From Caldimicrobium sp. (GTDB taxonomy: Bacteria > Desulfobacterota > Thermodesulfobacteria > Thermodesulfobacteriales > Thermodesulfobacteriaceae), in contig JANXCE010000007.1 of the NCBI GenBank assembly GCA_025059715.1, forward strand, positions 1 to 64,000: DNA of 64,000 bases, written 5' to 3'. The notes beneath the pieces are model-generated. The model was given only the letters and a program-made list of their open reading frames with translations, had not been told where the DNA came from and did no database searches. Below are positions 6,447 through 54,869 of the stretch, one piece after another. Numbering within the stretch: the first letter of the stretch is position 1; each line of letters starts with the position of its first letter. The translations under genes and the position numbers were made by a program.

Positions 6447-7019
6447 ATGAGTGAACAAGAAAATAAAGAGAGAGAGGTTCAAAAGTTAGCCCAAGAGTGT
6501 TGTCAACGGGCCTATGAGGCTTGGCTTAAAGGTAACACCTTAGATGCTCTTCACTACTACGAGGAGGCCTTAGAAATATTTAGAGAACTGGGGAGTCTTC
6601 CAGATATGGCAAATGTTCTAGAAAAAATTGGCGACATTTATCATATACGACAAAAATTTGATCAAGCTTTAAAGGCATACAAAGCCTGTTTGGACATATG
6701 CGAAAATTTTGATGATGAAATTAGCACAAGTATCGTTGCGGAAAAGATTGTCCATGTGTATAAAGAAAAGGGAGAATTAGAAAAAATGATCCCCTATCTC
6801 CATCGCATCCTTGAAATTGCGGAGAAGTATAAAGATGCCCATCGTGCAGGACGAGCTTTAACTGGCCTTGGCGATGTCTATGCATCAAAGGGAGATATGA
6901 AAACAGCAAAAGAGGCCTATAAACTTGCCCTTAAAATCTTTAAAGGAATGGGTGCTTTAGAACAAACAAAACTTTTAGAGGAAGCTCTCAAAACTATAGA
7001 GGAAAAATTTGAATCCTGA
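6447..7019 (+). CDS. TPR repeat protein
   Basis: TPR motifs; TGATG overlap with polA. Confidence 0.75.
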   Translation: MSEQENKEREVQKLAQECCQRAYEAWLKGNTLDALHYYEEALEIFRELGSLPDMANVLEKIGDIYHIRQKFDQALKAYKACLDICENFDDEISTSIVAEKIVHVYKEKGELEKMIPYLHRILEIAEKYKDAHRAGRALTGLGDVYASKGDMKTAKEAYKLALKIFKGMGALEQTKLLEEALKTIEEKFES

Positions 7020-49187: not shown

Positions 49188-49320
49188 CCTCTCTCTTTGG
49201 AAAAGATATAAAAGATTCTTTTGGACTTATTTAAAAGAGAGTCCATGGTATCTCTGGATTCTCAGAATAACAGGGGCACTCCTTATTGCATATATTCTAA
49301 TTAAAGGCTTAGGCCTTTAA
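49180..49320 (+). CDS. Small single-TM membrane protein (46 aa), GTG start
   Basis: MSNLSLWKRYKRFFWTYLKESPWYLWILRITGALLIAYILIKGLGL*; translationally overlaps the hpt stop; absent from the ORF track because of size. Confidence 0.5.
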   Translation: MSNLSLWKRYKRFFWTYLKESPWYLWILRITGALLIAYILIKGLGL

Positions 49321-50606
49321 TATATTATAGGTCCAGGACAGTAAGGATCCAATTCTTTAAAGGGATCTAAATTATAACTATGGGTCACCGCTAAGCAACC
49401 TCTACAAAGGCCATATAATTTACAACCCTGACATTTTATAGACCCAAGTCTATATCTTTGAGCCTCTTCGGAGTAATAAATTTCTTTTAGCGAAGCGCTC
49501 AAAATATTACCCAAGGGGGAGGGGAATTTTCTACAGGCATGAACCTCACCATTAGGTAAAAGGACTAAAAAATTAAAAGCAGCGCCACAACCAAAACCTG
49601 TGCACCCACCGGAGAGCGGTTTTCCTTGTTTTATAAGGAGATAATTAAAAAAATTATCCTTTAGCTCTAAGTAGCCTTTCTCCTCACTAATTTCTAAAAA
49701 TCTTTCTAATACGTTGAAAAACTTCTCTTTACTTGTTGGGGTTAGACCTTTAGCTTCTCCAACCAGGGAGAGCCTATTGAAAGTAAAAGTGTCCGTAAAT
49801 TCCTCTATATAAAGAGCTAAGGGTATTAAATCCTCTAAATTGATTTCATGAAGGGTCATCATAACTCCTCTTGGCACATCATATTTTTCCAGAAGTTTTA
49901 AAAAGGAAAGAGTCCTTTTAAAGTGCCCCTTGCCTCTTATTTTGTCATTCACTTCTTCCAGCCCTTCCAAACTTACCTGATAATAAGCTGGCACCTCAAT
50001 CTCGCATATTTGAGCAATAGCCTCTTCTGTAACAGGATTGCCAAGAATAGATAAACCAAACCCCATTTCCGAAGCTTTTTGGTAAAGCTTAAGAAAATCG
50101 GGATATAAGAAGGGATTTCCTCCAGAAAAACTTATGTGACCAAAAGCCCCCATTTCTTCACAAAATTGATAAAAATCCTCTAGTATCTTTAAATTTTGGG
50201 GTAAGGGTAACTCGGTGATTGAACCTCTGTCATAACAATGCTGACACTTCATATCACAGCGATTGGTTATATGCCATTGTAAGGTAAAAACTTCCGAAAT
50301 TTTAAAATTTTCATTAGGGAAGTAGGCTGTTTGATAGGGGGGCTCTGAGCGGACTATCTTACTAATATTCCTACATAAATAGCCACGATCCTTACCATAA
50401 GCAAGAATTTTTTGTAAAAATTTTATTTGTGTCCCGTAAGCTCTGGATAATTCTAATAAATTATGAGCCTCATCAACAATTTTAACGGCTAATAGATCCC
50501 AGGGATTAGCCTTTATCTTTTTTAGATTACCATTAACCAAAAAACTTAAAAAATATTCTTCCCCCACCCTTTCTATTCTAAGAGTGGGGTTTAAACTGTA
50601 GAGCAT
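49317..50606 (-). CDS. sbtM: Radical SAM/SPASM RiPP maturase, probable SbtM-type (selenobiotic peptide maturase)
   Basis: CDMKCQHC radical SAM cluster, SPASM-like C-terminus (CGAAF..CRKF..CQGCKLYGLCRGC), N-terminal PqqD/RRE-like winged-helix region; 18 nt downstream of a precursor peptide gene. Confidence 0.8.
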   Translation of the reverse strand: MLYSLNPTLRIERVGEEYFLSFLVNGNLKKIKANPWDLLAVKIVDEAHNLLELSRAYGTQIKFLQKILAYGKDRGYLCRNISKIVRSEPPYQTAYFPNENFKISEVFTLQWHITNRCDMKCQHCYDRGSITELPLPQNLKILEDFYQFCEEMGAFGHISFSGGNPFLYPDFLKLYQKASEMGFGLSILGNPVTEEAIAQICEIEVPAYYQVSLEGLEEVNDKIRGKGHFKRTLSFLKLLEKYDVPRGVMMTLHEINLEDLIPLALYIEEFTDTFTFNRLSLVGEAKGLTPTSKEKFFNVLERFLEISEEKGYLELKDNFFNYLLIKQGKPLSGGCTGFGCGAAFNFLVLLPNGEVHACRKFPSPLGNILSASLKEIYYSEEAQRYRLGSIKCQGCKLYGLCRGCLAVTHSYNLDPFKELDPYCPGPIIY

Positions 50607-50624: not shown

Positions 50625-50807
50625 TTAATTTTTAGAAGCGGCTCCACCGCCTCTTTTAGGAGCAACGCTCCCTCATCCTGGTTTCTTTCAACCTGCCCCA
50701 CCATTCAACTCAAGGGACACTGAAGGCACACCGAGCTTTATGGCAGATTGAATCAGGGCACTTAAATCCCAACATTCCAAATACTCTTTAATTTTGGTAG
50801 TTTTCAT
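50625..50807 (-). CDS. sbtA: Selenocysteine-containing RiPP precursor peptide 1 (two in-frame TGA codons read as U)
   Basis: AGGAGG RBS; MKTTKIKEYLECWDLSALIQSAIKLGVPSVSLELNGGAGUKKPGUGSVAPKRGGGAASKN*; aligns with peptide 2 through both TGA codons. Confidence 0.8.
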
Positions 50808-50862
50808 AAAAAACCTCCTATTAGGAATAAATTTTTGACCTTAGCCTACCCGAGGCCTACAA

Positions 50863-51135
50863 CTATCCTCAACCACTTTTGCCTCTTGGTTTTTTATCCT
50901 CTTTGGTGGCGTTAGAGGTTTTGTTTTCTGTCTTTTTATCCTTAGTTGCATTATCGGTTTTTGAAGCGGGTCCACCGCTTCTTTGGGGAGCTCCACTCCC
51001 TCAACCCGAAGGCCCTCAACCAGATTGCCCCTTCTGTCCTACTGCAACTCCAGGAACCCCAAGTGAAAGAGCTAAACTTATTAACGCACTAATACTCCAC
51101 TCCTTTAAATGAAACTTAACCTTTTCCTCTCTCAT
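50863..51135 (-). CDS. sbtA: Selenocysteine-containing RiPP precursor peptide 2 (three in-frame TGA codons read as U)
   Basis: AGGAGG RBS; MREEKVKFHLKEWSISALISLALSLGVPGVAVGQKGQSGUGPSGUGSGAPQRSGGPASKTDNATKDKKTENKTSNATKEDKKPRGKSGUG*; SGUG motif three times. Confidence 0.8.
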
Positions 51136-51198
51136 AAACACCTCCTATTATTTTTAGGAATAAATCTTCCAAAATAAATTAAGTTTTTTTATAAGTCT

Positions 51199-51227
51199 AT
51201 TTTAAAAGGAAATATATAAAAAGTCAA
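51199..51227 (-). promoter_or_regulatory. Strong sigma70-like promoter for the selenopeptide/maturase operon
   Basis: TTGACT - 17 nt - TAAAAT on the minus strand, about 60 nt upstream of precursor 2 start. Confidence 0.7.
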
Positions 51228-52493: not shown

Positions 52494-52685
52494 CTACCAC
52501 CAGGAGATGGTTTTATCCGCCTCCCAGATTAGGTCCACCAGTCTGTCGTAATCTGCATCTGAATTAGCTTCAAAGAGATTGAATTCTACAATTTCGTGTC
52601 CCTTTTCCTTTAATTTGGCTATTATTTTTTTTATATCTTCATTCTCTGCACTTGCCATATGTCTATATACACTCAATAGCTTCAT
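52494..52685 (-). CDS. Small conserved protein at the end of the YTD-like cluster
   Basis: 63 aa, co-directional with the dsrE gene and followed by a terminator. Confidence 0.6.
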   Translation of the reverse strand: MKLLSVYRHMASAENEDIKKIIAKLKEKGHEIVEFNLFEANSDADYDRLVDLIWEADKTISWW

Positions 52686-52708
52686 CTCACTCTACCCTCC
52701 TTTAAAAA

Positions 52709-53065
52709 TTATGCACATTGCGGTGGAGCTTGAATTTTTTGGGCTGGTAAACCGTAGCCCACCACGAAATCACATTCTAAAATCTTATCAACCACCTCAT
52801 CAAGGGTTGCCTCTGCTAAGCCCCACTCTTGAAGGTTATAATTTTTTGTCTCCTCATCCATGGTTTCAGTTACTGCATACACCTCTCCTTCCATATCCCG
52901 GATCCAAGCAAGATTCTCCTCCAAGTATTCTGTTTTAGCAGGCATTTTTTGATAAAATATAAAGGAATAGGAATACATGTTTTCCACTGCTAAACCAAGA
53001 GCTGATCGTAACCCATCGGTAATATAGGGTCTATTAGCTATTAAGAAGCATACTTTGTAGCTCAT
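52709..53065 (-). CDS. DsrE-fold-like small protein in the YTD-like cluster
   Basis: 118 aa, MSYKVCFLIANRPYITDGLRSALGLAVENMYSYSFIF resembles DsrE/DsrF-like start. Confidence 0.55.
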   Translation of the reverse strand: MSYKVCFLIANRPYITDGLRSALGLAVENMYSYSFIFYQKMPAKTEYLEENLAWIRDMEGEVYAVTETMDEETKNYNLQEWGLAEATLDEVVDKILECDFVVGYGLPAQKIQAPPQCA

Positions 53066-53083
53066 ACTTTTCCTCCTTAAAGA

Positions 53084-53413
53084 TTATAAAACCAAATATT
53101 TTCCAACCTCTTCCAACATTTCTCCGTGAAAGGCCTGAGTCCTCATTTGATTTGCTGTTAAACCTTGATTATGATATTCGGGCTCAAATCCTTCACAGGC
53201 AAAGGCTGCCACACAAATTGCTAAATCTTCCTCTGGAAGCATAGTTTTAAGTTTGTTAAAATCCGGATGAAACACCAAGTGCGTAGATTTAAAGGTAAAG
53301 AATATCTTGGCTTTCTTACCTTTTCTTTGCAATGCCTCTACTATTTTTACTAATTCTTTCATATGCGCTGGTGAGGTAACAAATATCCCGAGTTTATCTG
53401 GATCGTTAGCCAT
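53084..53413 (-). CDS. DsrE family protein
   Basis: KLGIFVTSPAHMKELVKIVEALQRKGKKAKIFFTFKSTHL...CVAAFACEGF. Confidence 0.7.
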   Translation of the reverse strand: MANDPDKLGIFVTSPAHMKELVKIVEALQRKGKKAKIFFTFKSTHLVFHPDFNKLKTMLPEEDLAICVAAFACEGFEPEYHNQGLTANQMRTQAFHGEMLEEVGKYLVL

Positions 53414-53434
53414 TTCAAACCCCCTCTTAGTTTT

Positions 53435-53680
53435 CTATTTTTTCCTGATAAAAAATCTGGTGTAACCTGGTTCATCAATCATACCTAAAAATTCATATCC
53501 CTCCTTTTCGCACATCTTAGGAATGTCATTTTTACTTCCAGGATCGGTGCCTAAAACTTCTAAAATTTGTCCTGAGGAAAGCTTTTGTAAAGCCTTTTTA
53601 GTTTTAAGCATGGGCATAGGACAAGACAAGCCCTTGCAATCCAGGACCTCATCTGCTTTAATAGTGCTTAAATCTACCAT
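53435..53680 (-). CDS. tusA: TusA-family sulfurtransferase
   Basis: DCKGLSCPMPMLKTKKALQKLSSGQILEVLGTDPGSKNDIP. Confidence 0.92.
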   Translation of the reverse strand: MVDLSTIKADEVLDCKGLSCPMPMLKTKKALQKLSSGQILEVLGTDPGSKNDIPKMCEKEGYEFLGMIDEPGYTRFFIRKK

Positions 53681-53702
53681 CTCCCTTCCCTCCTTTTTAG
53701 TT

Positions 53703-54869
53703 TTATAAACCTATAACAAATTTTTCTGTTTTTTCATTCCAATCTACTATTATATACCACAAAAGAATTATTACCGCAAGTAATATAAAGGCCCCTGCAT
53801 ATCCCAATAAATCTGGTAGATACACCGCAGTTCCTAACCAACCTTTATCCCAAACTTCCCATACATTGTCTAAATAATACCTTAAAATAGCATTAGTGAG
53901 GGCAAAGAAAACCACAACTATCATTAACTTGACCTGACCCTCCGCTACTCTCCAAAGAGAGCCTGAACCACACCCTCCAGCCACAACCATCGCTGCTCCA
54001 AAGATAACACCTCCGATTAGAGCCCCCCACACGAAAGTTGGGGTAACATAAGTCATAGGCTCTCTAATACCTGCAAGTTTGATGAACATAATACCGAGAG
54101 TGGCTATTAGGATACTTATAGCTACGCCTCTGGCCATAGATGCCTCTCCAGACAAAAAGGGCTCACGGAAAGAATTTACAATACAAAACCTTGATCTATG
54201 CATTACAAACCCTATTCCTGCGGTAATCAAAAGCGCACCTCCTAATAGCGCACCCTCCTCCCTTTCACTTCCAAAATAACAGGAAACCCCAGCAAAAAGC
54301 ACTATTAATCCCACTATCCCAAGAATTGGATTAATCTTTTTGGTGCTAATTTCCACTCCCCCTGTAGAAGCAAAGCGTTCTATCTCCCAAAGAAGATACT
54401 TAACACCGATAAATACCCCGGCTATAAGGCCCACCATCATGGCTATCCCACTAGCAGAGAGATTGGCAATAGCCATGTAAAAACCACCAATGTTACAACC
54501 TTGCGCCAGAGCGGAACCAATACCCATTAAGATTCCTGCAACGATGCCCTTTATAATTTCAAGCTTGGGAGGTATTCTTAGCCCAAACTCTTGGGCCATG
54601 GTTGCGGATATAAAAGCCCCAAGAATAAGACCAATGTTTAGGACTGAAGAAGAAAACCACAGAGGATGAGGCGGGGCCTCCTCAAGAAATCCAATCCCAT
54701 AAAGGATCCATTCTCCCCAGTTTCTGAGCCCACCCACTATTCCCCAGGGTCTATACCACATTTCTAACAAAATTACAAACAAAGCCAGTAAAATACCCCC
54801 AGCTATGGGACTATAATGAGCCTTAAAAATGCTTTGATATAATTCTTTTAGACTGTCCTTTAAAGACAT
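53703..54869 (-). CDS. yedE: YeeE/YedE family transporter
   Basis: Two-repeat permease with GNIGGFY-like (CNIGGFYMAIANLSASG) and RSRFCIVNSFREPFLSG, VVAGGCGSGSLWRVAEG motifs. Confidence 0.88.
   Translation of the reverse strand: MSLKDSLKELYQSIFKAHYSPIAGGILLALFVILLEMWYRPWGIVGGLRNWGEWILYGIGFLEEAPPHPLWFSSSVLNIGLILGAFISATMAQEFGLRIPPKLEIIKGIVAGILMGIGSALAQGCNIGGFYMAIANLSASGIAMMVGLIAGVFIGVKYLLWEIERFASTGGVEISTKKINPILGIVGLIVLFAGVSCYFGSEREEGALLGGALLITAGIGFVMHRSRFCIVNSFREPFLSGEASMARGVAISILIATLGIMFIKLAGIREPMTYVTPTFVWGALIGGVIFGAAMVVAGGCGSGSLWRVAEGQVKLMIVVVFFALTNAILRYYLDNVWEVWDKGWLGTAVYLPDLLGYAGAFILLAVIILLWYIIVDWNEKTEKFVIGL

What the first reader, a model, noticed from the sequence alone, without database searches (positions are those of the whole stretch)
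50863..51135. Hidden precursor peptide with three in-frame TGA codons in repeated S-G-U-G motifs
Seen in sequence: on the minus strand, after TAATAGGAGGTGTTTATG, the reading frame is MREEKVKFHLKEWSISALISLALSLGVPGVAVGQKGQSG-U-GPSG-U-GSGAPQRSGGPASKTDNATKDKKTENKTSNATKEDKKPRGKSG-U-G*, ending in TAG. All three TGA codons (codons 40, 45, 89) have the context GGT TGA GG(G/A), i.e. Gly-U-Gly. Standard ORF calling reports only a spurious antisense ORF here (50879..51112 +). TGA is a normal stop elsewhere in the window (e.g. the TPR gene at 7019), so a recoded genetic code is not the explanation. Inference: TGA encodes selenocysteine, giving a ribosomally made, multi-Sec natural-product precursor.
Basis: partly seen in the sequence, partly recalled or inferred. 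Interest (0 to 1): 0.95.

Follow-up and report, generated by a model that had tools for sequence, protein, structure and literature searches.

The report
Multi-selenocysteine SbtA precursor peptides beside SbtM
Two small neighbouring genes, invisible to ordinary gene finders, encode peptides carrying three and two selenocysteines that a radical enzyme next door is expected to turn into selenium-containing rings; the class (SbtA/SbtM, 'selenobacteriocin') is already known, but this locus is an unannotated thermophile member, and the analysis points to a kinship with copper-binding peptides.

Summary
The peptide (50863-51135, -) is the first of two tandem precursors; the second (50625-50807, -; two TGAs) was missed. 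Both precede a radical-SAM gene (49317-50606, -) that scores 511 bits against TIGR04082, the thio(seleno)oxazole maturase SbtM (cut-off 350). The genome has selA, selB, tRNA-Sec and selD, and selD itself contains an in-frame TGA. Relatives with SbtM carry the same precursors; one has Cys where its neighbours have TGA. Across 152 TGA codons in 56 precursors a hairpin sits about 11 nt downstream. At 36 TGAs next to the stop codon the hairpin lies beyond the stop (median -9.4 versus -3.3 kcal/mol at 707 ordinary stops, p = 6e-17), so coding constraint cannot explain it. Cys codons in the same motif lack it. This is the known SbtA/'selenobacteriocin' class (TIGR04081, motif SGUG), so a new member of a known kind. 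Its precursors fall below the family model's cut-off, and its SbtM has lost an N-terminal domain. That domain, intact in other SbtMs, best matches 3DEE (DUF2063/PME1), the partner of enzymes making copper-binding thiooxazole peptides. I infer that SbtA products are selenium analogues of those metal sponges. Function is untested.

The parts
50863..51135 (-). sbtA1: precursor peptide of 90 aa, Sec at 40, 45 and 89, core motifs SGUGPSGUG and C-terminal GKSGUG-stop
51141..51146 (-). ribosome-binding-site-like AGGAGG of sbtA1
   Evidence: read directly
51199..51227 (-). best promoter-like match upstream (TTGACT-17-TAAAAT, 10 of 12); consensus match only
51016..51018 (-). TGA codon 40 (Sec)
51001..51003 (-). 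TGA codon 45 (Sec)
50986..51000 (-). SECIS-like hairpin for TGA40 (GGGAGTGGAGCTCCC, starts 15 nt after TGA40 and directly after TGA45)
50963..50981 (-). SECIS-like hairpin for TGA45 (GAAGCGGTGGACCCGCTTC)
50869..50871 (-). TGA codon 89 (Sec), two codons before the TAG stop
50837..50857 (-). SECIS-like hairpin for TGA89, wholly downstream of the TAG stop (GGCCTCGGGTAGGCTAAGGTC)
50625..50807 (-). sbtA2: second precursor of 60 aa, Sec at 40 and 45 (GGAGUKKPGUGS); 47% identical to sbtA1
50658..50672 (-). SECIS-like hairpin for TGA40 of sbtA2 (GGGAGCGTTGCTCCT)
50634..50654 (-). SECIS-like hairpin for TGA45 of sbtA2 (AGAGGCGGTGGAGCCGCTTCT)
49317..50606 (-). sbtM: radical SAM/SPASM maturase, TIGR04082 (511 bits, cut-off 350); residues 1 to about 80 RRE-like; lacks the roughly 90-aa N-terminal helical domain of other SbtMs

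Best explanation
An operon sbtA1-sbtA2-sbtM. Ribosomes with SelB and Sec-tRNA read five UGA codons as selenocysteine, each helped by its own stem-loop about 11-19 nt downstream; for the last UGA of sbtA1 the stem-loop lies past the stop codon. SbtM binds the N-terminal leader through its RRE-like domain. By the chemistry published for SbtM, it removes four hydrogens at each Sec, closing the preceding carbonyl oxygen onto the Sec beta carbon to give a 5-selenooxazole. The product is most likely a soft-metal, perhaps Cu(I), sequestering peptide: a selenium counterpart of bufferins/captophorins. Shown here by computation: the reading frame, Sec machinery, SECIS hairpins, family of the maturase, and the fold of its N-terminus. 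Inferred: the chemistry in this organism, export, metal binding. The confidence given is for multi-Sec SbtA precursors matured by SbtM; for the metal role alone it is about 0.4.
For: SbtM identity. Sec machinery; selD of this genome also has TGA (SGUASK) with a -12.2 kcal/mol hairpin at +11. Precursors found only in relatives that have SbtM, although selA is in 37 of 41 genomes. Sec-type precursor found in the SbtM locus in 58 of 80 genome-contig loci. Hairpin peak at +9..+15 over 152 UGAs; terminal UGAs -9.4 versus -3.3 kcal/mol at 707 ordinary stops, p = 6e-17; GT in apex 88% versus 30% in controls, no T-run, 34 distinct sequences of 36; absent at most of 23 Cys codons in the same motif. SbtM chemistry on Cys and Sec peptides (PMC11002830). 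Metal role by analogy: the N-terminus of canonical SbtM matches 3DEE (DUF2063/PME1) first of 350,542 chains, E 7.9e-5, with TglHI second and third; 5-thiooxazole peptides bind Cu (PMC12668002); DUF2063 partners go with Sec-signal-peptide precursors (PMC12452194), and most SbtA leaders look like signal peptides.
Against: No expression, mass or selenium data. The five hairpins of this locus are individually modest: 1-11% of control stops are as stable, over a slightly wider search range. sbtA1 and sbtA2 are not recognised by TIGR04081 itself; membership rests on intermediates and the neighbour. No metal gene is conserved next to SbtM: only sbtA-sbtM is shared. The window's SbtM lacks the DUF2063-like part, and sbtA2 has a leader too polar for a signal peptide, so the bufferin analogy is weaker here than in the family.
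Confidence: 0.9

Rival explanations
1. TGA is a true stop and the product is a 39-aa peptide; the open frame beyond is chance or a dead remnant.
For: TGA is used as a stop elsewhere; nothing here measures translation.
Against: Conserved protein sequence past every TGA in relatives, full Sec machinery, positioned hairpins including beyond the stop codon, Cys at a Sec site in L021, SbtM next door.
Confidence: 0.02
2. TGA is read as another amino acid (code change or a suppressor tRNA such as Trp or Gly), not Sec.
For: The frame is open under any sense reading of TGA.
Against: tRNA-Sec, selA, selB and selD are present, and SECIS-like hairpins occur at these TGAs but not at Cys codons of the same motif. 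In relatives the site alternates with Cys.
Confidence: 0.02
3. Same peptide and Sec, but the product serves as a bacteriocin or signal, or as a selenium store, rather than a metal-binding peptide.
For: The name 'selenobacteriocin' is in use (PMC13188914). No conserved metal genes next to sbtM; no metal assay exists here.
Against: No conserved exporter, protease or immunity gene either. The PME1-like domain and thiooxazole chemistry point to the Cu-binding peptides.
Confidence: 0.5
4. The hairpins after the last TGA are transcription terminators or attenuators between sbtA and sbtM rather than SECIS elements.
For: They lie between the precursor and the maturase gene.
Against: None of 33 is followed by T4 within 8 nt; they keep a fixed distance from the TGA and a GT apex. 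No terminator-like site in this operon.
Confidence: 0.04

Closest known systems
SbtA/SbtM thio(seleno)oxazole RiPPs ('selenobacteriocin'; TIGR04081/TIGR04082; Lewis et al. 2021; system first proposed by Haft and Basu 2011, the latter from my own knowledge)
   Same: Adjacent SbtM over the curated cut-off, SGUG core motifs, Sec machinery, leader alignable through Thermodesulfobacteriaceae intermediates.
   Different: Precursors below the TIGR04081 cut-off; tandem pair of precursors; TGAs only 15 nt apart; a TGA two codons before the stop; SbtM lacks about 90 N-terminal residues.
Bufferins/captophorins (MNIO + DUF2063 partner, 5-thiooxazole, Cu-binding; PMC12668002, PMC12452194)
   Same: Product ring type; repeated Cys/Sec-Gly motifs; signal-peptide-like leaders in most SbtA; the N-terminus of canonical SbtM has the DUF2063-plus-RRE fold (3DEE).
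   Different: Installed by a radical SAM enzyme, on selenocysteine, in anaerobes; MNIO and DoxX genes were not searched for genome-wide; metal binding untested.
SPASM radical SAM RiPP maturases SuiB and CteB
   Same: Best whole-chain structural matches of the window SbtM, with an N-terminal RRE-like domain.
   Different: They make carbon-carbon or thioether cross-links; SbtM belongs to TIGR04082.

Membership tests
SbtM (TIGR04082) | score above the curated cut-off of 350 bits | tested here: met
   510.9 bits, profile 119-516 of 516
SbtM (TIGR04082) | radical SAM CxxxCxxC motif and SPASM domain | tested here: met
   PF04055 and PF13186 hits; C117, C121 and C124 invariant
SbtA precursor (TIGR04081) | leader scoring above 30.5 bits | tested here: not met
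   No hit for P0001 or P0002; relatives score 39.4 (L025) and 24.0 (L026). The family model does not recognise these peptides directly; homology is through L023/L026 (E about 1e-12)
SbtA precursor (TIGR04081) | SGUG-type core with Sec, next to SbtM | tested here: met
   motif as in the review table (PMC13188914)
Bacterial selenoprotein gene | selA, selB, selC, selD in the genome | tested here: met
Bacterial selenoprotein gene | SECIS stem-loop just downstream of UGA with G/U-containing apex | tested here: met
   clear for the family, modest for single sites of this locus
Thio(seleno)oxazole RiPP | loss of 4 H per Cys/Sec and heterocycle formation | not testable with these tools
   reported for another SbtM (PMC11002830)
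Captophorin/bufferin | MNIO enzyme installs the ring | tested here: not met
   the adjacent maturase is radical SAM; therefore not a captophorin, only like one
Captophorin/bufferin | DUF2063 (PME1) partner | tested here: inconclusive
   fold present in the N-terminus of canonical SbtM (3DEE rank 1; Pfam DUF2063 only 0.054, NGO1945_C 8.5e-4 in one member each); the window SbtM keeps only the RRE half
Captophorin/bufferin | copper binding | not testable with these tools
   needs the modified peptide

The most novel reading that the evidence does not exclude
SbtM is a radical SAM enzyme fused to the same DUF2063/RRE recognition module that diiron MNIO enzymes use to install 5-thiooxazoles. SbtA peptides would then be the selenium branch of the bufferin/captophorin strategy: multi-selenooxazole peptides, mostly exported, that sequester Cu(I) or other soft metals in anaerobes.
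Probability: 0.4. Interest if true: 0.78.

Novelty: new member of a known kind. Interest (0 to 1): 0.5.

Why it matters
The class itself was known, but its biological role is not. The locus shows that current family models miss deep-branching members. A bacterial UGA can sit two codons before the stop with its SECIS hairpin in the untranslated region. Several closely spaced UGAs can each carry a hairpin. The fold match between SbtM's N-terminus and the DUF2063 partner of copper-peptide enzymes gives a first concrete, testable idea of what these selenium peptides do.

Tried and rejected
Rfam found nothing in the window at gathering thresholds, so it neither supports nor excludes a SECIS. A second tRNA-Sec candidate (C80) is tRNA-Ser(tga) by ARAGORN. 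Weak P0001 hits in G006 without TGA (E 0.003-0.005) were dismissed as chance. No plasmid match for P0001. HMM search of the SbtM N-terminus against PDB sequences gave nothing even at E 10; only the fold comparison found 3DEE. Synonymous/non-synonymous counting of sbtA1 against L027 was uninformative because the DNA is 98% identical there. Conserved metal genes next to sbtM were looked for and not found. In 17 of 80 loci no precursor was recognised, some of them on short contigs. Haft and Basu 2011 and Lewis et al. 2021 are not held in the library and were not read.

Full report
Observation. On the minus strand, 51135-50863 encodes MREEKVKFHLKEWSISALISLALSLGVPGVAVGQKGQSGUGPSGUGSGAPQRSGGPASKTDNATKDKKTENKTSNATKEDKKPRGKSGUG and ends in TAG, with TGA at codons 40, 45 and 89. 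Directly downstream, 50807-50625 encodes MKTTKIKEYLECWDLSALIQSAIKLGVPSVSLELNGGAGUKKPGUGSVAPKRGGGAASKN with TGA at codons 40 and 45. The two are paralogues (E 1e-10, 47% identity). The next gene, 50606-49317, is a radical SAM/SPASM protein scoring 511 bits against TIGR04082 'thio(seleno)oxazole modification radical SAM maturase SbtM' (cut-off 350). The only 10-of-12 promoter-like match near the start lies just upstream, and no terminator-like site was found in the operon.

TGA is selenocysteine. The genome (99.6% complete) has selA (605 bits), selB (378 bits), tRNA-Sec (79 bits, anticodon tca) and selD (343 bits). selD itself has an in-frame TGA at SGUASK followed by a -12.2 kcal/mol hairpin at +11. 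Eight of the 60 genomes searched, all in the same family, have a true SbtM; all eight carry precursors beside it, and no genome without SbtM has a convincing match. selA is found in 37 of 41 genomes, so SbtA tracks SbtM rather than Sec in general. In L021 the first site is Cys (SGCSGUG), which fixes the meaning of the position.

SECIS. I collected 56 precursors with 152 TGAs. The mean folding energy of 22-nt windows is about -2 to -3 kcal/mol in the flanks, apart from a -4 shoulder 18-24 nt upstream, but -8 at +9 to +12 after the TGA. The most telling subset is 36 TGAs within 12 nt of the stop codon, where the hairpin falls in untranslated RNA: median best energy -9.4 versus -3.3 kcal/mol at the same place after 707 ordinary genes of the same loci (p = 6e-17). 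Those hairpins have 34 distinct sequences, a GT in the apex in 88% (30% in controls) and no T-run, so they are not terminators. At 23 Cys codons in the same peptide motif, from five Cys-rich precursors, the hairpin is largely missing (median -2.4). The E. coli distance of 11 nt from UGA to the SECIS stem (own knowledge) fits. In the window each TGA has its own hairpin: TGA40 the one that begins right behind TGA45, TGA45 the next, TGA89 one beyond the TAG. Single-site strength is modest: 1-11% of control stops are as stable. Conserved residues a few codons after internal Sec (GAGS, SAVS, GGGA) coincide with the hairpin and are missing after terminal Sec, so part of the 'peptide motif' is probably RNA constraint (inference).

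Spread. A scan of GTDB genomes with the SbtM alignment gave 80 loci (Thermodesulfobacteriota, Desulfobulbales, Geobacterales, Nitrospirota and others). In 58 a Sec-type precursor lies in the locus, in 5 more a Cys-type one. In the 56 curated precursors most have 2 to 4 Sec and one has 5. Clustering of neighbouring genes found nothing else conserved: sbtA-sbtM is a two-gene cassette.

What is known. A 2026 review lists 'Selenobacteriocin, TIGR04081, SGUG, 2 Sec' (PMC13188914), and SbtM from another organism was shown to remove four hydrogens from Cys and Sec peptides, giving a thiooxazole by NMR for the Cys substrate (Lewis et al. 2021, as described in PMC11002830). So the finding is a new member of a known kind. 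Differences of this locus: the peptides fall below the TIGR04081 model, there is a tandem precursor pair with a less hydrophobic second leader, and SbtM is about 90 residues shorter, as in all Thermodesulfobacteriaceae found.

What it may do. The missing N-terminal part drew attention because its YLPDLARLE pattern recalled DUF2063. I noted the expected match to 3DEE and then ran the test: the AlphaFold model of a canonical SbtM N-terminus (pLDDT 92) has as its first hit among 350,542 PDB chains 3DEE, the DUF2063 protein NGO1945 (E 7.9e-5, TM 0.60, 194 columns), followed by the MNIO/partner pair TglHI. Pfam gives only weak support: NGO1945_C 8.5e-4 and DUF2063 0.054, one member of 20 each. DUF2063 proteins are the partners of MNIO enzymes that install 5-thiooxazoles on Cu-binding bufferins/captophorins (PMC12668002), and they go with precursors bearing Sec signal peptides (PMC12452194). 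Most SbtA leaders also look like signal peptides or lipoprotein signals (a crude rule, no dedicated predictor was run). The window SbtM keeps the RRE half (hhalign probability 99.2). I found no paper in the library making this link. Hence my working model: two unrelated enzyme types use the same recognition module and the same ring chemistry, and SbtA is the selenium branch, probably for soft-metal sequestration. The link is computational, and the metal function is an inference.

Unexplained. Between this genome and Caldimicrobium sp. SKYB93 (L051) the DNA is 92-100% identical over sbtA1 and most of sbtA2 but only about 70% in sbtM. That is the reverse of what is usual for RiPP precursors, and suggests recent exchange of the precursor cassette or unusual constraint.

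Noticed in passing
window 50663-51092 versus L051 1-420: DNA of the precursor block is 92-100% identical to Caldimicrobium sp. SKYB93 while the adjacent sbtM is only about 70% identical; a sharp drop inside sbtA2 suggests recombination or strong RNA-level constraint.
   Followed up: partly
L124:4710-5300 and other canonical sbtM loci: The N-terminal ~180 aa of canonical SbtM fold like the DUF2063/PME1 partner of thiooxazole-forming MNIO enzymes (3DEE rank 1; TglHI ranks 2 and 3).
   Followed up: yes
window 52494-54869, minus strand: YedE/TusA-like sulfur or selenium relay genes lie about 1.4-4 kb upstream of the operon; not conserved next to sbtM elsewhere.
   Followed up: partly
L024/L053 (Thermodesulfatator sp.) and L022: Variant motifs SAUA and SGUA, where Ala replaces the Gly after Sec.
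   Followed up: no
L096, L103, L118, L121, L128: A group of Desulfobulbales-type precursors ends in AIEGC, a conserved C-terminal Cys of unknown meaning.
   Followed up: no
L022 and L025: SGUSGUG: two TGAs only 9 nt apart followed by a single hairpin, so one SECIS may serve two UGAs.
   Followed up: no
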